Positions 28,233-41,288 of a stretch of 64,000 bases of DNA are shown here, piece after piece. The notes beneath the pieces were generated by a model. That model did no database searches. It saw only the letters and a list, made by a program, of their open reading frames with translations, and was not told the origin of the DNA. The number at the start of each line of letters is the position of its first letter. Position 1 is the first letter of the stretch. Both the position numbers and the translations under genes were made by a program. The stretch comes from Photorhabdus noenieputensis (GTDB lineage Bacteria > Pseudomonadota > Gammaproteobacteria > Enterobacterales > Enterobacteriaceae). Location of the stretch: positions 1-64,000 of the forward strand of contig NZ_RCWC01000016.1 in the NCBI RefSeq assembly GCF_018448935.1. The letters run 5' to 3'.

Positions 28233-29126
28233 CTATCGCTCCTGTGGGAATAAGTTATCTACCATGAAATCAACAAAAACTTTGACTTTGGGAAGTACCC
28301 AGCGGTTAGATGGCCATAGAACACGGAAAGTACTCGAAGTATCAGACCATTTATCCAACACGGTTAATAATGTACCGTTAGCCAATGCTTGCTTAACGGT
28401 AAAATCAGGCAAACAGGCAATGCCGTGACCTTGCAGTGTCATGTAAAGTAGTGTTTCGACATGATTGCAGGTCATCTTTGCTTGAAGATGTATATCCCCT
28501 CCAGACTCTCCTAAGCATAGCGGCCATTTCTCCAAAAGATTGGTTGTTGGAAACCGGTGCATCAAGCAGGCGTGATGGAGTAAGTCTTTAGGTTGTGATG
28601 GCTTACCATATTGTGCAAAGTAACTGGGAGCGCCAACGTATAAAAAACGGCTAGATCCGATACGTTTGTTCATCAATCGTGAATCATTGAGTTCTCCTGT
28701 TCGCACCACAGCATCAAACCCTTCATCAATGACATCAACGAGTCGATCACTAAAGTCCAAATCCAATTCTATCTGTGGATAACGTACAGTAAAGGCTGAC
28801 AATACGGGCAGCATCAGGCTGCTGACTAATGGCAGGCTCACCCGCAAACGGCCTTGAGGTGCAGAGATAGAACTCAATAATTCATTTTCTGCCGAGGTGA
28901 TTTCGTCCAAGATGCGCTTGCAACGTTCAAGGAATAGAGTGCCTTCTGTCGTTAAACTGACGCTGCGAGTGCTACGTTGGAGCAGGCGTACCCCCAATTT
29001 CTCTTCCAACCGGGAGATGCTTTTACTGATGGACGAAGGGGATAACCCAAGTTGATTGGCCACGGCTGTGAAACTACGAGCTTCGGCTACACGAATGAAA
29101 ATCATGAATCTACTCAAACTATTCAT
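28233..29126 (-). CDS. LysR-family transcriptional regulator
   Basis: A 297-residue regulator: winged helix-turn-helix at residues 1-60 (ARSFTAVANQLGLSPSSISKSISRLEEKLG), linker helix, and a periplasmic-binding-type effector domain. It resembles the group that controls drug and aromatic-compound responses. It is transcribed away from the MFS exporter gene with 170 bp between, the standard layout for a LysR regulator and its target, so it is inferred to control the exporter. The effector is unknown. Confidence 0.9.
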   Translation of the reverse strand: MNSLSRFMIFIRVAEARSFTAVANQLGLSPSSISKSISRLEEKLGVRLLQRSTRSVSLTTEGTLFLERCKRILDEITSAENELLSSISAPQGRLRVSLPLVSSLMLPVLSAFTVRYPQIELDLDFSDRLVDVIDEGFDAVVRTGELNDSRLMNKRIGSSRFLYVGAPSYFAQYGKPSQPKDLLHHACLMHRFPTTNLLEKWPLCLGESGGDIHLQAKMTCNHVETLLYMTLQGHGIACLPDFTVKQALANGTLLTVLDKWSDTSSTFRVLWPSNRWVLPKVKVFVDFMVDNLFPQER

Positions 29127-29296: not shown

Positions 29297-30820
29297 ATGG
29301 TGATGAAATCTCAAGTAAATATTGGATCAAGCGCAAATAAAGGGCCGCTGGTCTTGACTGCCTGTCTTACCGCCGCGGTGATTCCTTTGAGCATTGCAGG
29401 ACCTGCCGTCGTGGTGCCTTCGATCAACAAAGCGCTTGGTGGAAGTGCGGTAGAACTGAGTTGGGTCATTAACGCTTACATTCTTACTTATGGCAGTGCA
29501 ACAATGGCTGCGGGTAGCTTAGCCGATACTCATGGGCGCAAGAAACTCTGGCTATTCGGTTTATTTCTCTTTGCTGTTGTTACTGCGGCGATACCTTATA
29601 TGCCGTCCGTGTTTTGGGTTGATATTTTACGGCTCATACAGGGGTTGGGAGCGGCGGCGGCCTTTGCGGGTTCAATGGCAGCGTTGACTCAGGAATTTGA
29701 GGGTCATCAACGTACACACATTTTCAGCCTGATTGGCACAACATTTGGGGCAGGAGCAGCTTTTGGTCCTTTTTTGGCCGGGCTACTTATTGATTCGTTA
29801 GGATGGCCTTGGGTTTTTTGGCTACCTGCTTTGGTGGCATTAGTTGCCAGTATATTGGTGAGTATTTATGCACGAGAAACACGCGATCCCGACGCAGAAG
29901 GGCTGGATTGGCCCGGCGCAATAACATTTACCTCATCTTTAGCTGCTTTTACCTATGGAATCATTCTGGCTCCGGAAAAAGGATGGGGAAACAGTACGGT
30001 GCTTGCAACACTGATCTGTTCCATTATTATTTTCATCATATTTATTATTATTGAACGACAACGTTCAAGGCCCATGTTAGATCTCTCGTTATTTGCCAAT
30101 GCGCGCTTTGTCGGTGTGCAACTTCTCGCCATCGCGCCAGCCTATGCTTATGTTGTCTTGCTCGTTATATTGCCGGCACGTTTTATTGGTGTCGAAGGGT
30201 ACAGCGCATTCGAAGCCGGCCAAATGATGATTACCTTGTCCGCGCCGTTGCTAATAGTCCCCTTTATTGCCGGTCAATTAGCTCGCTGGATTAATGTCGG
30301 TGTCATTTCAGGTATGGGGCTTCTCATCGCTGCTGGTGGCCTATTCTGGCTAGGTTATGGGATCTCTGGCAATACGACGGCTGAAAGATTATGGCCAATG
30401 TTGGTTATCGGCATCGGAATTGGCCTGCCTTGGGGATTGATGGACGGTTTGGCGGTGAGTGTCGTACCTAAAGAGCGAGCGGGTATGGCGACTGGAATTT
30501 TCAATGCTGTCCGTTTAGCGGGAGATGGTATCGCCTTAGCGGTGGTAGGCGCGATTCTCTCTGCTCATATATCTTCGGGTTTAAGTACATTAAGCAATAT
30601 TCCGGCTGATATTTTATCTGAAATATCTACACGTCTTGCAATGAGCGATTTAAGTAATGCTGTTGCTATTTCCCCTTCATTAGATAAGTCATTGCTCCAT
30701 AAGGTATACGAAGAAGCATTTCGATATCAATTCATTGCACTTGCAGTAGCGGCAGCAATTACCGCAATGTTAGTGTTTATTTTATTGGGTAAAGTAAAAT
30801 CCCACGGTGAAAGTAAATAG
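29297..30820 (+). CDS. MFS exporter, DHA2 (14-helix) drug:H+ antiporter family
   Basis: A 507-residue inner-membrane transporter with about 14 hydrophobic helices. Motif A is seen as GSLADTHGRKKLW after helix 2, and the antiporter motif C region as GAAFGPFLAGLL. Such proteins expel toxic organic compounds using the proton gradient. Placed immediately upstream of the aminohydroxybenzoate cluster on the same strand, it could export its product, but a 335-bp gap and its own LysR gene leave this open. Confidence 0.9.
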   Translation: MVMKSQVNIGSSANKGPLVLTACLTAAVIPLSIAGPAVVVPSINKALGGSAVELSWVINAYILTYGSATMAAGSLADTHGRKKLWLFGLFLFAVVTAAIPYMPSVFWVDILRLIQGLGAAAAFAGSMAALTQEFEGHQRTHIFSLIGTTFGAGAAFGPFLAGLLIDSLGWPWVFWLPALVALVASILVSIYARETRDPDAEGLDWPGAITFTSSLAAFTYGIILAPEKGWGNSTVLATLICSIIIFIIFIIIERQRSRPMLDLSLFANARFVGVQLLAIAPAYAYVVLLVILPARFIGVEGYSAFEAGQMMITLSAPLLIVPFIAGQLARWINVGVISGMGLLIAAGGLFWLGYGISGNTTAERLWPMLVIGIGIGLPWGLMDGLAVSVVPKERAGMATGIFNAVRLAGDGIALAVVGAILSAHISSGLSTLSNIPADILSEISTRLAMSDLSNAVAISPSLDKSLLHKVYEEAFRYQFIALAVAAAITAMLVFILLGKVKSHGESK

Positions 30821-31155
30821 AAAAAACAATTGATATTAATAATAAAATCACAAATGTTAATTATTCTGTAATTTGAGAAACTGTCTTTTATCATCAGGAG
30901 AAATGCCGACACTATCTATATACCCTTAAACACAGAGTGAAACTTTTCTACACATTTTCCCACATTGGAAAAACAATAAATAACATATTCAGGAGAATAT
31001 AATTACACACCTTTTTAATATTATTAAATAAAAATTTAAAGTTTGGGTGTTTATCGACATGAGAAAAACCGAAGATATGATAACAATTTATTATTATTTA
31101 TTAAAAAAATTACCAATTGAAGAAATTATCTTATATTTTACGGGGGATTTTGAAT
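30821..31155. promoter_or_regulatory. Leader region of the aminohydroxybenzoate cluster
   Basis: A 335-bp, very AT-rich gap between the exporter and the first biosynthetic gene. No clear terminator or operator palindrome is seen. A ribosome site (CGGGGGA) lies at about 31141-31147 before ATG 31156. This is the most likely place for the cluster promoter. Confidence 0.4.
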
Positions 31156-32463
31156 ATGAGCAAAAATATCGTTAGCGTACCAAAGGAGGCAGTTAGTATC
31201 ACGTCTGAAAATTTTGAAACGTCTGAAATAATTGCCAAAAGGGCATCTATAAGATTAAATAGTCCAGGCAAAGAGTATAATTCCAAGCGTGAAGATTTAA
31301 ATGGGCCAGTCATTTGGTTTGATACTGCAAAATTGTCAGCCCAGAGGCCAGACGATACTATTTTCATCAGGGTGATAAATTCTCTTTATAGTGGTATAGT
31401 TTTATATCCAAATAATATTTCAACTTTCATCAATGCAATACCCAAAAGAATGCAAATAGTTCTGAAAGTGAGAACACTTGAAGAGCTTAATAAATTTAAA
31501 GAGAGCGAACATTTTGCTTTATTTAAATCTTCTGATACCAACTCGAATAAATGTATTTGCTCCAACGACATAGCCACTTTGAAGAAACTTAAAGCAGAGT
31601 CTATTGCGACCTGCTATGAAAGTTATGTTGATGATCAAGATAGTCTGCTTAAAACAATCAATGAAGGAATGGAATTCAATTTTCTTTGGATTCTTTTTCG
31701 TGATCCAACCAATATTCCTCTTGAGCTGGTAATTGCATCATTACAGTCTACCGGGACTATTTTATTAAAAGAAATTAGCGATCCTGATGATGTTGATGAT
31801 GCAATAGTCTCTTATGGTGTGATGGAATATGGTGCTGAAGGTGTTATTTTCTCACCCAATAAACATGATGTTATGAGCGACTTTATCGATCGTTTATCAT
31901 ATAACAAAAAAGAATCACTGCAACTGCAAGTCGGAATCATTACAGAAAGTCGTCCTGTCGGTATGGGATATCGAGCTTGTATTGATACATCCACGTTATT
32001 CAGCGAGAACGAAGGCATGCTGGTAGGTAGTACCTCCCAAGGTGCCCTGTTGTGCTGCCCGGAAGTATTCTTTCTACCTTATATGGAACTGAGACCATTC
32101 CGTATTAATGCCGGAGCGATACACTCCTATGTATATAACTTTAATAACCGAACAGATTATATGAGCGAATTAAAAGCCGGCTCATCGGTAATGGCGGTTA
32201 ATTCGAAGGGTGAAGTACGGCATATAACGGTTGGGCGCGTCAAAATAGAACAACGCCCTCTTCGGTTAATTGAAGCAGAGTTTCCAGGGAACAAACGGGT
32301 GAATGTTTTGATGCAAGATGATTGGCATGTGAGAATTTTCTCTAGCGAAGCAAAACCTTTAAACATCTCTGAACTTAAACCTGGAGACAAGGTGCTTGGT
32401 TATATTACCGAGCCTGGTCGTCATGTTGGCATTAAGATTAATGAATCTATTATTGAAAAGTAG
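31156..32463 (+). CDS. DHQ synthase II-like enzyme (GriH-type 3-amino-4-hydroxybenzoate synthase)
   Basis: A 435-residue member of the archaeal-type 3-dehydroquinate synthase II family. Family blocks: VIWFDTAKL near residue 60, LKAESIATCYESYVD, LLKEISDPDDVDDA, EYGAEGVIFSP, and the C-terminal VGSTSQGALLCCPEV, LRPFRINAGAIHSYV and PLRLIEAEF. In actinomycete grixazone and related pathways the homologue GriH turns the GriI product into 3-amino-4-hydroxybenzoate (3,4-AHBA); in archaea the homologue makes dehydroquinate. The aldolase directly downstream is the other half of that route. Start 31156 has a purine-rich ribosome site; an upstream in-frame start at 31117 is less likely. Confidence 0.85.
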   Translation: MSKNIVSVPKEAVSITSENFETSEIIAKRASIRLNSPGKEYNSKREDLNGPVIWFDTAKLSAQRPDDTIFIRVINSLYSGIVLYPNNISTFINAIPKRMQIVLKVRTLEELNKFKESEHFALFKSSDTNSNKCICSNDIATLKKLKAESIATCYESYVDDQDSLLKTINEGMEFNFLWILFRDPTNIPLELVIASLQSTGTILLKEISDPDDVDDAIVSYGVMEYGAEGVIFSPNKHDVMSDFIDRLSYNKKESLQLQVGIITESRPVGMGYRACIDTSTLFSENEGMLVGSTSQGALLCCPEVFFLPYMELRPFRINAGAIHSYVYNFNNRTDYMSELKAGSSVMAVNSKGEVRHITVGRVKIEQRPLRLIEAEFPGNKRVNVLMQDDWHVRIFSSEAKPLNISELKPGDKVLGYITEPGRHVGIKINESIIEK

Positions 32464-32466
32464 GTG

Positions 32467-33261
32467 ATGATTATGGGATACGTCGGAAGAAAATTAAGAG
32501 AAAGCAGATTGTTATTTCCCAAATCAAACCGCGGATTAATAGTGCCGATTGATCATGGGTTAACTCTGGGGCCCATCTCTGGTTTACAAAGTGTTTATGC
32601 GGTTGAATCGTGGATTAATAGCAACTATGTGAGCGCTGTTCTGGCCCATAAAGGAGTATTGGAAAAGCTCATTCTGCGTGGAATGTTGCGCCCTTCGACA
32701 GGTATTATTCTTCATATGAGTGGCATGCCATCGATATCAGAATCACCGGATACGAAGATATTAGTGGCGAGTATAGAAGCCGCTCTTCAACTCGGTGTAG
32801 ATGCCGTTTCTATACAGGTAAATTTCACCGAAACAAATTTCGAACACAATTTATCTATATTGGGCTCTGTCACAGATATCGCACATGAAGCAGGGCTGCC
32901 TGTACTCACAATGCTATATGACAAAGTTATTTCCGCGTCGTCAGAAATAAAGATGGAAAGGCTTCATCATCTTATCAGGATTGTCACCGAACTGGGATCT
33001 GATGCAATAAAAATAGGTTTTCCTGACTCAGAATCCGCTATTGCAGAAATCGTGGAACTTCATGGTTCTGATATTAAAATTTTCTTCGCCGGGGGAGAAA
33101 AAACGTCTGACGAAATACTGATTAATAATACCAAAGCCGCTATTTCGTCCGGAGCTTGCGGATTATGTGTTGGTAGAAATATTTTTCAAAATCTCAACCC
33201 ACAATCCCTGCTTCACCATTTATATGAATGTATAAATTCAGAATCAATATCTTTGGCTTGA
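32467..33261 (+). CDS. DhnA-type class I aldolase (GriI-type)
   Basis: A 264-residue TIM-barrel aldolase of the DhnA/ADH-synthase family: RGLIVPIDHGLTLGP at the N-terminus, GSDAIKIGFP with the Schiff-base lysine, FFAGGEKTSDEI, and GACGLCVGRNIFQN at the phosphate site. GriI condenses aspartate semialdehyde with dihydroxyacetone phosphate to a seven-carbon amino keto-acid phosphate, the substrate of GriH. The gene begins at the stop of the upstream GriH-like gene (ATG at 32467 or 32473), so the two are coupled. This pair makes 3,4-AHBA the predicted core of the product. Confidence 0.85.
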   Translation: MIMGYVGRKLRESRLLFPKSNRGLIVPIDHGLTLGPISGLQSVYAVESWINSNYVSAVLAHKGVLEKLILRGMLRPSTGIILHMSGMPSISESPDTKILVASIEAALQLGVDAVSIQVNFTETNFEHNLSILGSVTDIAHEAGLPVLTMLYDKVISASSEIKMERLHHLIRIVTELGSDAIKIGFPDSESAIAEIVELHGSDIKIFFAGGEKTSDEILINNTKAAISSGACGLCVGRNIFQNLNPQSLLHHLYECINSESISLA

Positions 33262-33305: not shown

Positions 33306-35741
33306 ATGGAACTCGCTATCAATACTCAAAACGAACCTAAAAAAGAAACAGGCTATTCTTTATCACCATTATGGGAAGACATTTTTTCTAAAGAGTTATT
33401 GGAAGAAATTAATACCAATGTATTTTTGGTGGCTTGCCGTTCTGGGAAAGCCAACCAGAATTTACTCAGAAAATTCATGATCCAGCACCAGTACTATTCA
33501 CAATATTTCACCCGATATCTGTGCTCGTTGATGGGAAATTTAATTGATCAAAATGATTTTACGCTTCTTTCGCATAATTTGCTGGAAGAGCTAACAGGAA
33601 CTGATGCGGCAAAGATATCTCACGTAGAATTATATAAAAAGGCGATGGCGGCAATTAATGCGGTTCCTAAAAGTTATCCGATGCTTAAAAGTACTCAGCA
33701 ATTGATTAATATTATGTTTGAGCATTGCCGAAGTGATAATTCTTTAAGGGGACTCGCTGCTCTATGTTTGGGTGCCGAGGCAATCGTGCCTTTGATTTAT
33801 GGTCCAGTTTTAGATGCATTGCGAACAATGAAAGCGCCTGATGACGCATTGCATTTCTTCAAAATCCATGTTGAGGAGGATGAAGAACATGCCATAGTGA
33901 TGAGGAAAATTATTGATCGCATGATTGAAGGAAACCCCCGCGGCAAGGCAGAAGTGATGGCTTTTGGTGCAGAAGTAATACGTTTTCGGATGACGATGCT
34001 AAATGAGATATATCAAAGTAGTGTTGGGATAGATCCGAATGTAACGACCCTTTTATCTGAACGTGATTTATTCTGTTTGCGTAATGATAACATGTTAGGT
34101 AGCGGTAATTTTCTTGACCGCTGTTTATCGCTAAGTAGTACCCCGAATGTGGATTTTATTTTTACAGATAAACCTATAACCATAGCGAGTCAACGTAATA
34201 TCCAACAATTCAGCCTGGATACCTTGGCAAATATTAGACGTGAACTGGCAGGTTGGTATTTGGCTAATGGGATTAAAACCGGGGATGTCGTTGCTGTTTG
34301 TCTGCAAGATGGAATTGGCCCATTTCTGCATTACATTGCAATCACGAGTATTGGTGCCACAATTGCGTTAATTAATCCGGCGATGCCGTCGGATATTGGC
34401 ATCTCTTATATCAAAGAGAACGGTTTTAATAAACTCGTCACCGATGAATTTTCTGTTAATCATAATTCACTGATAAAGAGTTTACGGAATGCCGGTGATA
34501 TATGTGAAATTCTCAATATTTCAAATTTCAATACCGAGGTGGAATATAACTTGCCTTCCTGGTGGCCGTATATTCCTGCGGATACAACATTACTGATGTT
34601 GAGCCATACTTCTGGTACGACAGGCGTTCCTAAAGCGGTAAAATTTGAACATCGTCAATTCTTTATGGGAAAACGTGCAAGGCTTGGACGTTTTATCGAA
34701 TCACCAGACGAGCGTTTGCTAACTGTTTTGCCGCAGTCTCACTCCTCTGCTATTAGTCACCTTGAAACGGCTATATTGCATGGTCTCCCAACTTATGTAC
34801 TTAGTAGCCAAGAGGGTGAACCGGTAAGAGAAGCGATAAAAGATTTTTCTCCTACAACGGTTGTTGCGTTTCCCAAAAGCTACGTTTCTTTGCTGGAACA
34901 CGAAGTATCGTATGCGGAATTCCCGTCAGTACGACGCTGGTTTAGCATGGGTGATGCAGCCCATCAGAGTCATATTAGCCGTTTACTGGTAGGTTCGCCG
35001 GGGGCGCGTTTTATCGATGCGTTTGGCAGTTCGGAACTTGGTATGGCTCTGTTTCAAAGTGTATCCACGGCAGATCAAATTGCACCGTCTCGTTCAATTG
35101 GACGTCCTGTTGATATCGTCACAGCCAAAATAGTGGACATGACTTCTGGTGATGAGATGTCGCCAGGAAGTGTCGGAGCGCTCGCGGTATGTTCACCAAC
35201 AATTACTTCTGGCTATTGGAAACAGCACCAGAAAACCGCTGATGCATGGCGAAATGGATATTTATTGACCGGAGATGTCGGATATTGCAAAGACAATGTT
35301 TTTTATCAGATTGATCGTGTGGTTGATGTTGTTCATACCCCTGACGGCCCGTTGTATACCCTTCAACTGGAAGAGGCGATACAGACAATCGAAAGTGTAT
35401 ATGATGCAACAATTATAGGATTGAATTTACCTTGTGCTGAAAATGGAAAAATAACATTAGTTGCATTGATTCTATTGAGTAAGAAATTAGCTGAGGATGT
35501 CGATATTGTTGCAGAAAAAATTCTTCAACTCATGCAGGAAAAGAATGGAATCGGGAACTCTATTGGAGAATATATTGTTATTGTTGTTAATAGTTTCGAG
35601 CAAATTCCTATTGGCGTAACCGGTAAGGTTTTGAAACGCAGATTAAGGGATCTTCTGCCTAAAATTCTTGAGGAATATGAAACAAGTAAAGAAATTCCAA
35701 ATGGAATTTTAAAAATCACTCGCTACATACCCACTAATTAA
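33306..35741 (+). CDS. Fusion of haem-oxygenase-like diiron domain and AMP-forming ligase
   Basis: An 811-residue two-domain enzyme. Residues about 20-240 are a helical haem-oxygenase-like diiron oxidase/oxygenase (HDO) domain with a full ligand set: E94/E95, H106 (ISHVELY), E158 (GAEAI), and H188-x3-D192-x2-H195 (HVEEDEEH). This is the pattern of SznF, UndA and CADD-type enzymes. Residues about 280-811 are an adenylating enzyme: phosphate loop HTSGTTGVPKAVK (433-446), GSSELG, LLTGDVGY, and the C-terminal catalytic lysine in TGKVLKRR. No carrier-protein domain follows. HDO enzymes carry out N-oxygenation, C-C cleavage or desaturation; AMP ligases activate carboxylates, and one relative (CreM) forms diazo groups. 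Which applies is unknown. I do not know this fusion from the literature. Confidence 0.8.
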   Translation: MELAINTQNEPKKETGYSLSPLWEDIFSKELLEEINTNVFLVACRSGKANQNLLRKFMIQHQYYSQYFTRYLCSLMGNLIDQNDFTLLSHNLLEELTGTDAAKISHVELYKKAMAAINAVPKSYPMLKSTQQLINIMFEHCRSDNSLRGLAALCLGAEAIVPLIYGPVLDALRTMKAPDDALHFFKIHVEEDEEHAIVMRKIIDRMIEGNPRGKAEVMAFGAEVIRFRMTMLNEIYQSSVGIDPNVTTLLSERDLFCLRNDNMLGSGNFLDRCLSLSSTPNVDFIFTDKPITIASQRNIQQFSLDTLANIRRELAGWYLANGIKTGDVVAVCLQDGIGPFLHYIAITSIGATIALINPAMPSDIGISYIKENGFNKLVTDEFSVNHNSLIKSLRNAGDICEILNISNFNTEVEYNLPSWWPYIPADTTLLMLSHTSGTTGVPKAVKFEHRQFFMGKRARLGRFIESPDERLLTVLPQSHSSAISHLETAILHGLPTYVLSSQEGEPVREAIKDFSPTTVVAFPKSYVSLLEHEVSYAEFPSVRRWFSMGDAAHQSHISRLLVGSPGARFIDAFGSSELGMALFQSVSTADQIAPSRSIGRPVDIVTAKIVDMTSGDEMSPGSVGALAVCSPTITSGYWKQHQKTADAWRNGYLLTGDVGYCKDNVFYQIDRVVDVVHTPDGPLYTLQLEEAIQTIESVYDATIIGLNLPCAENGKITLVALILLSKKLAEDVDIVAEKILQLMQEKNGIGNSIGEYIVIVVNSFEQIPIGVTGKVLKRRLRDLLPKILEEYETSKEIPNGILKITRYIPTN

Positions 35742-35768: not shown

Positions 35769-36464
35769 GTGAATGAAGATCTTTATGAAAAACCGGTTAT
35801 CGACACTATAAAACAAAAACTGATTCTTGCTGAATCCTCCGGTATTTCTGAGTTTGAATGTATGGGAAAGCTATTTAACATTCATAAAAATGTGTTCCCT
35901 CCCACTCATTTCCAGTCCACCGGTATTTTTACCCGGCATATTCCTTATGTGCGAAATAGCTCTTTTTTAGAATTAGGCTGTGGTGCGGGAGTGACCGCTA
36001 TTACCGCAGCACTAGAAGGGTGTTACCCAGTTGTTGCTTCCGATATTAGCGAGGAGGCAGTGAAAAACACCTTATTTAATGTGACTCGGCACCGGGTAAA
36101 TAATTTAATTTCTGTCAGGCATGGAGATTTATTTGACATATTAAAAGACGGTGAAAGTTTTGATATTATTTTCTGGAACTCTAATTTTTTATTTGTTCCT
36201 GAAAATTATTCTTTTAACGAGGAAATTTATCATGCATTTTACGACCCAGGATATATAACCCATAAACGCTTTCTTCAGGAAGCGAGAAAATATCTTAATC
36301 CTCAGGGCAAGATACTTATCGGGTTTAGCAGCCAGGGCAATGAAGCCGCATTTAGTGAGTTACTCTCAGAGCATGGCTACAACTATGTTGTTTTATACGA
36401 GGAAAAAGGAAAAGGTGAAAATGCACAGATATATAAAATCTTCCAACTGACATCTTTAATCTAA
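35769..36464 (+). CDS. Class I SAM-dependent methyltransferase
   Basis: A 231-residue Rossmann methyltransferase: LELGCGAGVTAITAALEG (SAM motif I, about residues 66-83), VVASDISEEAV (motif II acidic residue), and IIFWNSNFLFVPE in the place where HemK/PrmC-type enzymes have NPPY. The altered tetrapeptide (NSNF) suggests an amine or hydroxyl acceptor other than glutamine, but this is only an inference. It starts 27 bp after the fusion gene, with GAAGG upstream. Likely N- or O-methylates the aminohydroxybenzoate scaffold. Confidence 0.8.
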   Translation: MNEDLYEKPVIDTIKQKLILAESSGISEFECMGKLFNIHKNVFPPTHFQSTGIFTRHIPYVRNSSFLELGCGAGVTAITAALEGCYPVVASDISEEAVKNTLFNVTRHRVNNLISVRHGDLFDILKDGESFDIIFWNSNFLFVPENYSFNEEIYHAFYDPGYITHKRFLQEARKYLNPQGKILIGFSSQGNEAAFSELLSEHGYNYVVLYEEKGKGENAQIYKIFQLTSLI

Positions 36465-38223: not shown

Positions 38224-39948
38224 ATGATTGAGACAGATGTTCTTATCGTAGGTAGCGGTCCTTCTGGCTCCGCAGCAGCTTTGTTTCTGAGTACTTATGG
38301 GATTAATACAATGGTCATCACCAAACATCGGTGGTTGGCTAATACACCTCGTGCGCATATAACAAATCAGAGAACAATAGAAATATTATCAGAGTTTGGT
38401 GTTGGTGATGAATTAATGGCGAGCTCGGTACTAAATGAGGTGATGGGCAATAGTATATTCTGCGAGACGCTAGCAGGAAACGAAATTGCGAGAATAAAAT
38501 CATGGGGAGCGCATCCAGAACGTTTGGGTGACTATAAAATAGCGAGCCCATTTAGTATCTGTGATATACCGCAAACTTATCTTGAGCCGATATTGATTGG
38601 CCGAGCTATTAAAAATGGAGCACATGTTAAATTTTCGTCAGAATATATACAGGCTACACAAGATAAACAGGGGATTACGGTAACGGCTTTTGATCGTTTA
38701 GAAAAACGGGAATATAAAATACGGGCTAAATATCTTATTGGCGCTGACGGTGCCAGAAGTAACGTTTGTTCCGATGCACAATTGCCTATGAAAGGCGAAT
38801 TGAATCTTGCTGGCTGTATAAATATTTTCTTTGACGCTGATCTATCTGCTTTAGTTTCTCATCGGCCCGGAGCGTTATTTCTCATTTTCAATAATGAGGC
38901 TATTTCTGGTGGCATTGGCTTGGGTGCATTAAGGATGGTGCGTCCGTGGAAAGAGTGGTTAGGGGTGTGGAATTACGACATCGCTAAACCACCGCCCATA
39001 ATTACAGAGAATGATGCGGTCAATATTCTTAAAAAGCTTATCGGTGATTATGATGTGGATATAGATATTAAGTCGATATCGACCTGGACGGTAAATAATA
39101 TGTATGCGGAAGAGTATTCTAATCAACGTATATTTTGTGTTGGCGATGCTGTTCATCGGCATCCACCAAATAATGGGTTGGGATCTAATACCTCTATTCA
39201 AGATTCTTATAATTTATGTTGGAAACTTGCCTATGTTCTTAAACACTATGCGGGACCGGAATTGTTAGAAACTTATAGTCAAGAGAGAGTTCCAGTAGGA
39301 AAAGCGGTTGTTGCCCGGGCAATGCAAAGTATAAGTGAAAGCCAAGAACTGAGTCTTTCATTGGGGCTGGATAAACCTACCATTTCTACCGCAGAATTTC
39401 TTTCCGCTGATGATGATATTGGTATAGCGAGAAGAAATAGATTTTATAAAGCATTAAGATTGAAGAATTATGAGCTTAATGGACACGGAGCTGAGCTAAA
39501 TCAGCGCTATAGATCGGCAGCTATTTTGAACGAAAAAATTTCTAACGAAGAAGAAAAAAGTGATGATCTATTTTTCATGTATCACTCTACATTTACACCT
39601 GGTGCACGAATTCCACATGTTTGGTTAAGCCAAAAGGGAAAAATTATATCCTCAATTAATTTAGTTGGTCATGGGAAATTTTCATTGTTCACCGGAATAG
39701 CGGGGAAGAAATGGATTTCAGCAGTAGAAAAATATAACCAAGAACATGCTGGCAAAATAAATGCATATATTATTGGTCCTGGCGAGGAAATTGACGATAT
39801 TTATGGTGATTTTTATGGTCGCTGTCATTTTGATGAAAACTCCTGTGTTCTTGTCAGACCTGATGGACATATCGCATGGTATTGCCGAGATAATAGAGAG
39901 CATGATAAGCGCCTGGCAGAAAATATGACTAAGTTACTTTTAAAATAA
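38224..39948 (+). CDS. Class A flavin aromatic monooxygenase (second)
   Basis: A 574-residue homologue of the preceding enzyme: VLIVGSGPSGSAAALFLS, LIGADGARSNVCSDAQ and CVGDAVHRHPPNNGLGSNTSIQD, followed by a thioredoxin-like C-terminal domain. The finger RHPPNNGLG resembles 2,4-dichlorophenol/resorcinol-type hydroxylases (HRHPPxNGLGxN). Two different aromatic hydroxylases in one cluster suggest two successive ring oxidations. It follows the first after 57 bp in the same direction. Confidence 0.88.
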   Translation: MIETDVLIVGSGPSGSAAALFLSTYGINTMVITKHRWLANTPRAHITNQRTIEILSEFGVGDELMASSVLNEVMGNSIFCETLAGNEIARIKSWGAHPERLGDYKIASPFSICDIPQTYLEPILIGRAIKNGAHVKFSSEYIQATQDKQGITVTAFDRLEKREYKIRAKYLIGADGARSNVCSDAQLPMKGELNLAGCINIFFDADLSALVSHRPGALFLIFNNEAISGGIGLGALRMVRPWKEWLGVWNYDIAKPPPIITENDAVNILKKLIGDYDVDIDIKSISTWTVNNMYAEEYSNQRIFCVGDAVHRHPPNNGLGSNTSIQDSYNLCWKLAYVLKHYAGPELLETYSQERVPVGKAVVARAMQSISESQELSLSLGLDKPTISTAEFLSADDDIGIARRNRFYKALRLKNYELNGHGAELNQRYRSAAILNEKISNEEEKSDDLFFMYHSTFTPGARIPHVWLSQKGKIISSINLVGHGKFSLFTGIAGKKWISAVEKYNQEHAGKINAYIIGPGEEIDDIYGDFYGRCHFDENSCVLVRPDGHIAWYCRDNREHDKRLAENMTKLLLK

Positions 39949-40020
39949 AGTGTTTTTAACGTTATTTCAAAATAGTAAAAAATAAAAATTTTGGCATAAG
40001 AGATGATATCAGAGGTAATT

Positions 40021-40473
40021 ATGGTGAAAAAGAGTTATTTCTCCTCTGGAGACTTTAATAAAGTTCCCGGTGAATTAATTGAAGATAAACCAACGCAATT
40101 AATTCATGAAAATGTATTGAATTCTGACGTTAGCCAAGATTTGAATTTCTCAAATGAAAGACGTCATAAAGTAGCTATGGTTAATTTACCCAGTAAAGTT
40201 TTGAGTATGACATTAGGAGGATTACAACCTGGAGAATCCACTCGTAAACACCGACATAGCTATGAAACGATAATCTATATCGTGAATGGCGAAGGATATT
40301 CATCAATTGGCGAGCAACATGTTTCATGGAAAGCCGGTGACGCGATATATGTGCCTGTGTGGGCATGGCATCAACATACAAATAGCAGTGTCACTGATGA
40401 GGCTCTTTATATTGCATGTGAGAATGCCCCCATGTTGCAAAACTGGGGCCTTGCCGTTCGTGAAGAACTTTGA
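40021..40473 (+). CDS. Small cupin protein, probable metal dioxygenase
   Basis: A 150-residue single cupin. Motif 1 is G-x5-HRH-x3-E-x6-G (ESTRKHRHSYETIIYIVNG) and motif 2 ends GDAIYVPVWAWHQHTN, so two His plus Glu plus His are available for one metal. Small cupins of this kind act as dioxygenases or isomerases on catechol- or aminophenol-type compounds, or as quercetinase-like enzymes. The start at 40021 is chosen for the AGAGG eight bases ahead. Context suggests action on the hydroxylated aminobenzoate, for example ring cleavage. Confidence 0.8.
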   Translation: MVKKSYFSSGDFNKVPGELIEDKPTQLIHENVLNSDVSQDLNFSNERRHKVAMVNLPSKVLSMTLGGLQPGESTRKHRHSYETIIYIVNGEGYSSIGEQHVSWKAGDAIYVPVWAWHQHTNSSVTDEALYIACENAPMLQNWGLAVREEL

Positions 40474-40541: not shown

Positions 40542-41288
40542 ATGTTTAGACTATCGGGGAAATATACATTAATTACCGGAGGAACAACCGGTATTGGTTT
40601 CGAAACGGCAAAAAAATTTCATGCCGAAGGAGCTCATGTTGCAATTACTGGAAACAATCCAGAGACATTAGATTTTGCCCAGAGATTCTTTGGCAAGGAT
40701 GTTTGGGTTATACCCAGTGACGCAGGGTCTTTGGCATCACAAGTCATCTTAAGGGATACAATTAAAGAGCGTTGGCCGCAGATTGATGCTCTGTTCCTAA
40801 ATGCCGGAATTGTGACGAGCCATAAATTAGAAGAAGAAAGTGAAGAAGGTTTTGATCGCCTGATGTCGATTAATTTAAAAGGGCCGTTTTTCCTCTTACA
40901 ATCTCTGCTCCCTCTTCTCGCGAGACCATCTTCCGTCATTTTATCCGGCTCAGTGAGTGGTCATATTGGTAAAAGTGGCACAAGTGCGACTTATTCAGCA
41001 AGCAAGGGAGCTTTATTAGCGATGGGACGTGCTTTGGCTGCGGAATTTGTCGATCGTCAGATTCGGGTTAATAGTATTAGCCCCGGCCCAATCATGACTC
41101 CGGCATTCGACAAACTAGGGATAAATAATACTCAACGTGTATATCAGGAAGTGAGCGCGATGATTCCAACTGGGCATCTAGGAACCCCGGCTGATGTCGC
41201 AGATGTAGCCGTTTTCCTCGCGTCAGATGAATCTAAGTTTTTGTTGGGAACTGATATTATTATCGATGGCGGTATGGTTAATATTTAA
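40542..41288 (+). CDS. Short-chain dehydrogenase/reductase
   Basis: A 248-residue classical SDR: TGGTTGIGFETAKKF (cofactor loop), LFLNAGIV, catalytic Ser in ILSGSVSG, and YSASKG with the Tyr-x3-Lys pair, ending in the IDGG-type tail. Cofactor preference is not obvious. It is the last gene of the cluster on this strand; a terminator-like hairpin follows. It probably reduces or oxidises a carbonyl/alcohol or a quinoid in the pathway. Confidence 0.9.
   Translation: MFRLSGKYTLITGGTTGIGFETAKKFHAEGAHVAITGNNPETLDFAQRFFGKDVWVIPSDAGSLASQVILRDTIKERWPQIDALFLNAGIVTSHKLEEESEEGFDRLMSINLKGPFFLLQSLLPLLARPSSVILSGSVSGHIGKSGTSATYSASKGALLAMGRALAAEFVDRQIRVNSISPGPIMTPAFDKLGINNTQRVYQEVSAMIPTGHLGTPADVADVAVFLASDESKFLLGTDIIIDGGMVNI

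What the first reader, a model, noticed from the sequence alone, without database searches (positions are those of the whole stretch)
33306..35741. Fusion of a haem-oxygenase-like diiron domain with an AMP ligase
The N-terminal domain keeps the complete HDO ligand set (E94/95, H106, E158, H188, D192, H195) and the C-terminal 530 residues keep all main adenylation motifs and the final lysine. HDO enzymes include N-oxygenases; an AMP-ligase homologue, CreM, forms the diazo group of cremeomycin from an aminohydroxybenzoate and nitrite. A single protein joining N-oxidation with ATP-dependent activation in a 3,4-AHBA cluster could make an N-O or N-N bond. The fusion is seen directly; the chemistry is speculation.
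Basis: partly seen in the sequence, partly recalled or inferred. Interest (0 to 1): 0.9.

Follow-up and report, generated by a model that had tools for sequence, protein, structure and literature searches.

The report
Diiron oxygenase fused to diazotase-like ligase
A Photorhabdus antibiotic-style gene cluster encodes one protein that joins an oxygen-using metal enzyme to a relative of enzymes that make nitrogen-nitrogen bonds, and the same joined protein occurs in Burkholderia and Pseudomonas, so the two halves probably work together in an untested reaction.

Summary
Window 33306-35741 is one uninterrupted 811-codon gene in a Photorhabdus 3,4-AHBA cluster: a haem-oxygenase-like dimetal (HDO) domain with all six ligands, then an ANL ligase with its catalytic Lys and Glu. 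The fusion recurs as one frame in three more Photorhabdus species, three Burkholderia genomes and, up to a contig end, Pseudomonas alcaligenes; P. khanii has it as two overlapping genes.

The ligase is not an ordinary acyl-CoA ligase: with 100/100 support it joins Tri17 and ligases beside nitrosuccinate lyase, the ATP-dependent nitrite-using clade. The HDO is nearest CADD but lacks CADD's sacrificial Tyr and Lys.

New points: (1) of 11 compared loci with this ligase plus the shared flavoenzyme FMO1, three (Streptomyces) carry CreE/CreD-like nitrite genes and eight carry the HDO, none both; (2) four Photorhabdus genomes tested lack CreE matches and CreD, NarG or NapA over cut-off; (3) at a second, decayed locus the HDO, without ligase or 3,4-AHBA synthase, stays under strong purifying selection.

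Best reading: a diazotase that carries its own N-oxygenase to supply oxidised nitrogen in place of CreE/CreD. The HDO reaction is inferred, not shown.

The parts
33306..35741 (+). Fused gene: HDO domain + diazotase-clade ANL ligase, 811 aa
33306..34025 (+). HDO (haem-oxygenase-like dimetal) domain, residues 1-240; ligands E95, H106, E158, H188, D192, H195
34026..34076 (+). Linker, residues 241-257; the stretch where the HDO frame ends in P. khanii and P. tasmaniensis and in six decayed-locus copies read
   Evidence: low pLDDT 241-250 in the poor model
34077..35660 (+). Diazotase-clade ANL ligase domain, residues 258-785; TSGTTGVPK 435-443, GDAAHQSHI 549-557, E577, K774
31117..32463 (+). 3,4-AHBA synthase half: DHQS-II (BagC/FevH-like)
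32464..33261 (+). 3,4-AHBA synthase half: DhnA-type aldolase (BagB/FevI-like)
35769..36464 (+). SAM methyltransferase, 52% identical to the gene after the fusion in one Burkholderia genome
36505..38166 (+). FMO1, group A flavin monooxygenase; 43-47% identical to the FMO beside the ligase in three Streptomyces clusters that also carry CreE/CreD-like genes
38224..39948 (+). FMO2, second group A flavin monooxygenase
40003..40473 (+). Small cupin, nearest solved relatives gentisate 1,2-dioxygenases
40542..41288 (+). SDR oxidoreductase
29297..30820 (+). MFS exporter, present in the four other intact clusters compared
28233..29126 (-). LysR regulator, also kept at the decayed glnS-locus copies

Best explanation
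The protein is a diazotase that carries its own nitrogen-oxidising partner. The C-terminal domain adenylates nitrous acid with ATP and passes the nitroso group to the amine of a 3,4-AHBA-derived o-aminophenol (probably first hydroxylated by FMO1 and methylated by the adjacent methyltransferase), giving an o-diazoquinone of the cremeomycin kind or a cryptic diazo intermediate. The N-terminal HDO uses O2 at a dimetal site to oxidise an amine of a common metabolite and so provides the nitrous-acid-level nitrogen that CreE/CreD supply in Streptomyces. Shown here: the fusion, its conservation, ligand and catalytic residues, diazotase-clade kinship, and no CreE match and no CreD/NarG/NapA over cut-off in four Photorhabdus genomes. 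Inferred from the family: adenylation of nitrite and a diazo product. Inferred only from gene content: that the HDO makes the oxidised nitrogen. My separate estimates: ligase is a nitrite-activating N-N enzyme 0.75; HDO is an active dimetal oxygenase 0.85; HDO feeds oxidised nitrogen to it 0.4.
For: Ligase: top four PDB chains 199-225 bits, fifth 83 bits; two of the four entries are Tri17, an ATP-dependent nitrite-using enzyme that also forms diazo compounds from anilines (PMC11705231, passages); best NCBIfam model is the AvaA6 diazotase, 258 bits against 182 for the next; one 100/100 clade of 12 rows apart from 4 other ANL; GDxxHxxH motif in 12 of 12 clade rows and 0 of 4 others. Fusion kept in four Photorhabdus species (window, L040, L041, L042), 3 genomes of the genus of B. 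multivorans (stop-to-stop frames of 838, 838, 837 codons) and P. alcaligenes to its contig end. Swap pattern: of 11 loci with FMO1 and the ligase, the 3 without HDO have CreE- and CreD-like genes and the 8 with HDO have neither. Nitrosuccinate lyase over cut-off in 0 of 9 genomes with the fused, split or broken pair; CreE-like match in 1 of 9; NarG and NapA over cut-off in 0 of 4 Photorhabdus. HDO copies without ligase: dN/dS 0.10, 28 pairs, so the HDO has a use apart from the ligase. The HDOs HrmI/BelK and SznF are N-oxygenases (PMC13108848, parts 1-3 of 6); HrmI stands at rank 7 of the Foldseek list.
Against: Lack of CreE/CreD is common: 72 of 134 ava-type clusters lack them (PMC10777205, passages), and 5 of 9 HDO-less loci here lack them too, so another nitrite source needs no HDO. 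The swap rests on two lineages, in effect one event; the loci compared differ in length (8-32 kb), and B. multivorans has CreE-like matches elsewhere in its genome. The HDO's nearest relatives by sequence and fold are CADD/pABA synthases, not N-oxygenases. The window ligase is far below the AvaA6 equivalog cut-off (258 of 975), so its substrate is unknown. FMO1 and cupin survive with the HDO at decayed loci, which hints that the HDO may work with them on an aromatic compound. No product is known.
Confidence: 0.35

Rival explanations
1. The HDO oxidises the aromatic amine itself (3,4-AHBA or its hydroxylated or methylated form) to a hydroxylamine or nitroso group, and the ligase activates the product or joins it to a second nitrogen; the first reader's version.
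For: The fusion lies in a 3,4-AHBA operon. HDO relatives include an azomycin N-oxygenase (title and abstract start in the listing only; that it acts on a heteroaromatic amine is recalled). FMO1 stays with the HDO at 5 of 8 decayed loci compared (one of the other three is a 5-kb contig), as if both used an aromatic substrate.
Against: Four Photorhabdus genomes keep the HDO but give no match to the 3,4-AHBA synthase half DHQS-II (G001, G002, G007, G009). Diazotases of this clade use the free amine plus nitrous acid, so an oxidised amine would be the wrong substrate.
Confidence: 0.25
2. The ligase diazotises with nitrite from outside (host nitric oxide chemistry in the insect, or medium), and the HDO performs another step of the same pathway (C-H, C-C or decarboxylation chemistry); fusion only fixes stoichiometry or passes an intermediate.
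For: 5 of 9 HDO-less ligase loci also lack CreE/CreD-like genes. The HDO is closest to CADD and also resembles UndA and BesC, which do not oxidise nitrogen. P. khanii has the two parts as separate overlapping genes.
Against: Does not explain why, among the 11 FMO1-bearing loci compared, HDO and CreE/CreD exclude each other.
Confidence: 0.25
3. The ligase is an ordinary acyl- or aryl-CoA ligase or an adenylation enzyme and no N-N bond is made.
For: ANL motifs are shared with these enzymes; AvaA6 equivalog cut-off not met.
Against: Tree and score gaps; FMO1 and ligase neighbours shared with clusters that carry nitrosuccinate lyase.
Confidence: 0.1

Closest known systems
CreM / AvaA6 / CmaA6 / Tri17 ATP-dependent nitrite-using N-N enzymes (ANL superfamily)
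   Same: Sequence clade (with Tri17), ANL motifs, 3,4-AHBA context as in cremeomycin and avenalumate
   Different: The characterised ones I read of are not described as fused and are fed by CreE/CreD-type enzymes; here an HDO is fused in front and no CreE/CreD-like genes lie beside it
CADD / NePabS self-sacrificing pABA synthases (HDO superfamily)
   Same: Nearest sequence and fold; six metal ligands
   Different: Sacrificial Tyr27 and Lys152 are Leu41 and Val168 here
HrmI/BelK and SznF N-oxygenases (HDO superfamily)
   Same: Fold (HrmI) and ligand pattern; E-H-D-H spacing of 30/4/3 as in SznF E281/H311/D315/H318
   Different: Not among the PDB sequence hits; SznF is fused to a cupin, here to a ligase; N-oxygenase activity untested
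SpiED (fused CreE-CreD of spinamycin)
   Same: A fusion that bundles nitrous acid supply in a diazo pathway (PMC11705231, passages)
   Different: SpiED joins the two nitrite-making steps; here the putative supplier is joined to the diazotase itself and is of another family
Cremeomycin and crexazone clusters
   Same: 3,4-AHBA synthases, CreM-like ligase, methyltransferase (PMC11429834, passages)
   Different: They have CreD/CreE-type genes; here none, with an HDO fused to the ligase and proteobacterial hosts. No cre or crx sequence was compared

Membership tests
ATP-dependent diazotase clade (CreM/AvaA6/Tri17) | Groups with characterised members rather than other ANL ligases | tested here: met
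   100/100, with Tri17; only 4 other-ANL rows; CreM and AvaA6 sequences themselves not available
ATP-dependent diazotase clade (CreM/AvaA6/Tri17) | Mg-binding Glu (CreM E352) and A10 Lys | tested here: met
   E577 in GSSELG and K774; the match to CreM E352 (named) is by motif, not by alignment with CreM
ATP-dependent diazotase clade (CreM/AvaA6/Tri17) | ATP- and nitrite-dependent diazotisation | not testable with these tools
   needs enzyme assay
AvaA6 3-aminoavenalumate diazotase (NCBIfam NF058622) | Score over equivalog cut-off 975 | tested here: not met
   258.5 bits; the two Streptomyces and the Klebsiella relatives also fall below
HDO superfamily | 3 His / 3 carboxylate ligand set | tested here: met
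HDO superfamily | Haem-oxygenase-like helical fold | tested here: met
   AlphaFold2 pLDDT 87.4, pTM 0.85; Foldseek best CADD, TM 0.84 by target length
HDO superfamily | Binds Fe or Mn/Fe and activates O2 | not testable with these tools
   needs purified protein
HDO N-oxygenases (HrmI, SznF) | Oxidises an amine or guanidine nitrogen | not testable with these tools
   inference only
CADD-type pABA synthase | Sacrificial Tyr27 and Lys152 | tested here: not met
   Leu41 and Val168
SznF-type HDO-cupin | HDO fused to a C-terminal cupin | tested here: not met
   cupin is a separate gene, nearest to gentisate dioxygenases
Cremeomycin-type 3,4-AHBA diazo cluster | 3,4-AHBA synthase pair | tested here: met
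   homologues, below the BagC/BagB exception-model cut-offs
Cremeomycin-type 3,4-AHBA diazo cluster | CreE/CreD nitrous acid pathway | tested here: not met

The most novel reading that the evidence does not exclude
A self-supplying diazotase: one polypeptide in which an HDO makes nitrous acid (or an enzyme-held nitroso equivalent) from an ordinary amine and hands it to the diazotase domain, a route to nitrite for natural products independent of aspartate N-oxygenase, nitrosuccinate lyase and nitrate reductase, spread through Photorhabdus, Burkholderia and Pseudomonas; in several Photorhabdus the HDO has been kept alone for another use.
Probability: 0.3. Interest if true: 0.87.

Novelty: new variant of a known kind. 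Interest (0 to 1): 0.76.

Why it matters
How bacteria without CreE/CreD next to a diazotase obtain nitrous acid is open: for about half of the clusters it surveyed, the Kutzneria paper leaves undecided whether the genes lie elsewhere, another route exists or nitrous acid comes from outside (passage). A physically fused oxygenase-diazotase is a concrete candidate for another route and gives a one-protein test with a simple read-out (nitrite, or rescue by nitrite). It would also add a function to the HDO superfamily, of which about a dozen members are validated, and points to an uncharacterised diazo-type metabolite of insect-associated Photorhabdus.

Tried and rejected
Considered and rejected: (1) annotation artefact or sequencing error joining two genes: rejected, since uninterrupted fused frames recur in other assemblies at 56-95% identity. 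(2) CADD-like pABA synthase: sacrificial residues missing. (3) SznF-like HDO plus cupin: the cupin is closest to gentisate dioxygenases. (4) Ordinary acyl-CoA ligase: tree and scores.

Led nowhere: the full-length fusion model is poor (mean pLDDT 52, residues 423-688 under 50), so nothing is claimed about domain contacts or a tunnel; VIA-align library not on the machine. Literature: no paper with 3-amino-4-hydroxybenzoic acid and Photorhabdus, none with 'heme oxygenase-like diiron' and diazotase, none with Photorhabdus, biosynthetic gene cluster and nitrous acid; (any two of Photorhabdus, diazo, aminohydroxybenzoic acid) found 65 papers and listed 20, none of those about it by title or abstract start, the other 45 not seen; one search listed 8 of 17 papers, none used. 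That Photorhabdus does not reduce nitrate is recalled, not looked up. The two cremeomycin papers I asked for are not held. Plasmid search: 0 of 31 matching records cover 80% of the query. In an even sample of the class, 2 of 369 genomes matched at E<=1e-50, one being the window's own, the other a ligase only. Not tested: assimilatory nitrate reductase by its own model, NO synthase, the CreM and AvaA6 sequences in the tree, CreE/CreD in the whole P. akhurstii genome.

Weak points of counts: the GDxxHxxH motif was seen in the alignments before it was counted; the other-ANL set is four rows, with long branches (warning); dN/dS is a Nei-Gojobori count of my own script, pairs are not independent; the HDO-less loci are 9 of the 31 plasmid records, chosen by rank and spread, and its 9 HDO loci are part of those fetched.
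Full report
WHAT IS THERE. Window 33306-35741 (+) is one open frame of 811 codons. Pfam finds Haem_oxygenas_2 at residues 55-219 and AMP-binding at 299-638, both well over cut-off. It lies in an operon-like row: LysR (divergent), MFS, DHQS-II, DhnA-type aldolase, the fusion, methyltransferase, two FAD_binding_3 monooxygenases (FMO1, FMO2), a small cupin and an SDR. The DHQS-II and aldolase match the 3,4-AHBA synthase models BagC/FevH and BagB/FevI (247 and 140 bits, below those models' strict cut-offs). Titles of the nearest records name the genus as Photorhabdus; the window's own contig is unnamed.

IS THE FUSION REAL. Yes. In a search of 97 genomes around the window, 10 match at E<=1e-30, all in the same genus. 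Of the 12 genomes held of that genus, 3 have the full fused frame (G000, G004, G006), 1 has two overlapping genes (G008), 1 has the HDO with pieces of ligase (G005), 4 have the HDO without a ligase at that threshold (G001, G002, G007, G009), 1 has only the distant HDO-aminotransferase protein described below (G010), and 2 have no match (G003, G011). The genome-contig scan (17 loci, reached through two short peptide patterns, so distant relatives may be missed) adds P. akhurstii with an uninterrupted fused frame and gives HDOs 58% identical in Burkholderia multivorans and Pseudomonas alcaligenes. In P. alcaligenes the frame runs from HDO into ligase to the contig end and the rest of the ligase starts on another contig. 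In the genus of B. multivorans, 6 of 65 genomes match: three with the whole fusion in one frame (56-57% identical), B. multivorans with the ligase frame interrupted in that assembly, and two with the ligase alone at 40%. The three keep the order DHQS-II, aldolase, fusion, methyltransferase, FMO1; one examined further has a cupin-domain protein and an SDR next, though that cupin has no BLAST match to the Photorhabdus cupin. B. multivorans also has FMO2, cupin and SDR relatives (66%, 57% and 62-64%). The same fusion in three distant genera makes it the older state; P. khanii (two genes overlapping by 26 bases, with a 4-base difference at the junction) is then a secondary split. This polarity is inference.

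THE LIGASE. Against the PDB the four best chains score 199-225 bits and the fifth 83. Two of the four are Tri17, proposed to adenylate nitrite and able to turn anilines into diazo compounds (PMC11705231, passages); the other two I could not identify. The best NCBIfam model is AvaA6 diazotase (258 bits, next 182), though far under its equivalog cut-off of 975. In a maximum-likelihood tree of 16 rows the window ligase, its Photorhabdus, Pseudomonas, Burkholderia, Klebsiella and Sinorhizobium relatives, Tri17, 9xb8, 8ztz and two Streptomyces ligases form one side of a 100/100 branch from four other ANL enzymes. Those two Streptomyces ligases lie beside a nitrosuccinate lyase that passes its curated cut-off (789 and 774 bits, cut-off 650). 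All 12 rows of that side carry GDxxHxxH, none of the four others.

THE HDO DOMAIN. AlphaFold2 on 18 sequences gives pLDDT 87.4 and pTM 0.85; Foldseek's best matches are CADD structures (TM 0.84 by target length), followed by proteins of unknown function, TenA-like proteins, HrmI, FlcD, UndA and others. Profile search also puts CADD and pABA synthases first. All six ligands are kept in 19 of 19 cluster-type HDOs; CADD's sacrificial Tyr27 and Lys152 correspond to Leu41 and Val168 (CADD facts from PMC13108848, parts 1-3 of 6, and PMC11965152, passages). So it should bind a dimetal site but should not be a CADD-type pABA synthase. Its reaction cannot be read from sequence: HDOs oxidise N, cleave C-C, desaturate or rearrange.

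WHERE DOES THE NITRITE COME FROM. Diazotases of this clade use nitrous acid, often from CreE and CreD. Nitrosuccinate lyase is over cut-off in 0 of 9 genomes with the fused, split or broken pair (the strongest per genome is 47-48 bits in Photorhabdus and 360-376 in Pseudomonas and Burkholderia against a cut-off of 650; the latter look like PcaB, an inference). A CreE-like protein is found in 1 of the 9, B. multivorans, at 33-43%. NarG and NapA are over cut-off in 0 of the 6 genomes tested, among them 0 of 4 Photorhabdus; weaker matches to other molybdoenzymes exist. I compared 18 loci: 9 with the HDO, none with CreE/CreD-like neighbours; 9 without the HDO, of which 4 Streptomyces have both CreE- and CreD-like genes and 5 (Klebsiella, Sinorhizobium, Streptomyces KN37, Embleya, Leisingera) have neither. 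Among the 11 loci that carry FMO1 with the ligase, the 3 without HDO all have CreE/CreD-like genes and the 8 with HDO have none. FMO1 is 43-47% identical between Photorhabdus and these Streptomyces (50-52% for one Burkholderia), so the two kinds of cluster look like one pathway with two nitrogen supplies. Against this: it is in effect one evolutionary contrast, the stretches compared differ in length, and 72 of 134 ava-type clusters also lack CreE/CreD without any HDO being mentioned in the passages I saw (PMC10777205).

THE DECAYED SECOND LOCUS. Next to glnS, eight Photorhabdus records keep LysR and HDO full-length; FMO1 is full-length in 5 of the 8 and the cupin in 7 of 8 (the record without cupin, also without FMO1, is a 5-kb contig). 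MFS, DHQS-II, aldolase, ligase and SDR give no match at E<=1e-20, and the methyltransferase only partial matches in 7 of 8; at a looser threshold weak pieces of ligase, MFS or FMO2 remain in some. In the six such HDO ends read out, the frame runs into the start of the former ligase and ends at the same TGA. The HDO evolves at dN/dS 0.10 (28 pairs, mean dS 0.27), FMO1 0.16 (10 pairs), cupin 0.14 (21 pairs), LysR 0.07 (28 pairs), with no internal stops. Four of these genomes show no DHQS-II match anywhere (G001, G002, G007, G009). The HDO therefore does something useful without the ligase and probably without home-made 3,4-AHBA. That fits an enzyme acting on a common metabolite, and speaks against 3,4-AHBA as its only substrate; but retention of FMO1 and cupin leaves room for another aromatic substrate.

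MECHANISM PROPOSED. Shown: architecture, conservation, residues, clade. Inferred from family: the ligase adenylates nitrite and diazotises an o-aminophenol. Inferred from gene content only: the HDO supplies that nitrogen. Rivals are an HDO acting on the aromatic amine, and an HDO doing an unrelated step while nitrite comes from outside, for instance from insect nitric oxide. The result that separates them is nitrite rescue of an HDO-dead cluster.

VERDICT. Observation confirmed; interpretation partly supported and sharpened. New domain architecture built from known families; no paper on it was found in the searches named under Tried and rejected, in an open-access library only. Interest 0.76.

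Noticed in passing
L033 10591-14118 (G007), L034 9726-11789 (G010); open frames of 1159-1175 aa in G002, G007, G009; L058 11938-13938 (Pantoea agglomerans plasmid): Another HDO (36-40% identical) continues into an aminotransferase (annotated ectB in Pantoea) and, in G007, on into an ATP-grasp-like region, next to ThiF/E1-like, TauD-like and CapA-like genes. These names are by eye from the translations of L033 and L034, not from a family search, except Pantoea's label. In G010 the HDO lacks four residues in the H-xxx-D-xx-H ligand stretch. A Xenorhabdus griffiniae HDO of this kind (L053) was aligned but its frame not examined.
   Followed up: partly
L030, L032, L045-L050: Decayed copy of the cluster at glnS with LysR, HDO, mostly FMO1 and cupin kept under purifying selection.
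   Followed up: yes
L031 8250-9515 (G000:C19): A shortened second diazotase-clade ligase (421 aa) beside a MocR-like gene (by eye) on the opposite strand, resembling Klebsiella michiganensis plasmid NZ_CP048110 (L025), where a full ligase follows a 3,4-AHBA synthase pair without HDO.
   Followed up: partly
L057 11962-12678 (Burkholderia stagnalis plasmid): Stand-alone HDO (37%) in a row with paired ketosynthases, carrier proteins, an annotated diiron oxygenase, a ferredoxin and an AMP-binding protein.
   Followed up: no
L080 1961-2800 and 14974-16680 (Leisingera plasmid): Diazotase-clade ligase relative (27%) about 12 kb from a formate/nitrite transporter gene and near pabB; possibly a nitrite-importing neighbour.
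   Followed up: no
L062 (Sinorhizobium medicae plasmid pWSM1115_3): Diazotase-clade ligase (709 aa) with 3,4-AHBA synthase homologues beside a large adenylation-domain (NRPS-like) gene.
   Followed up: no
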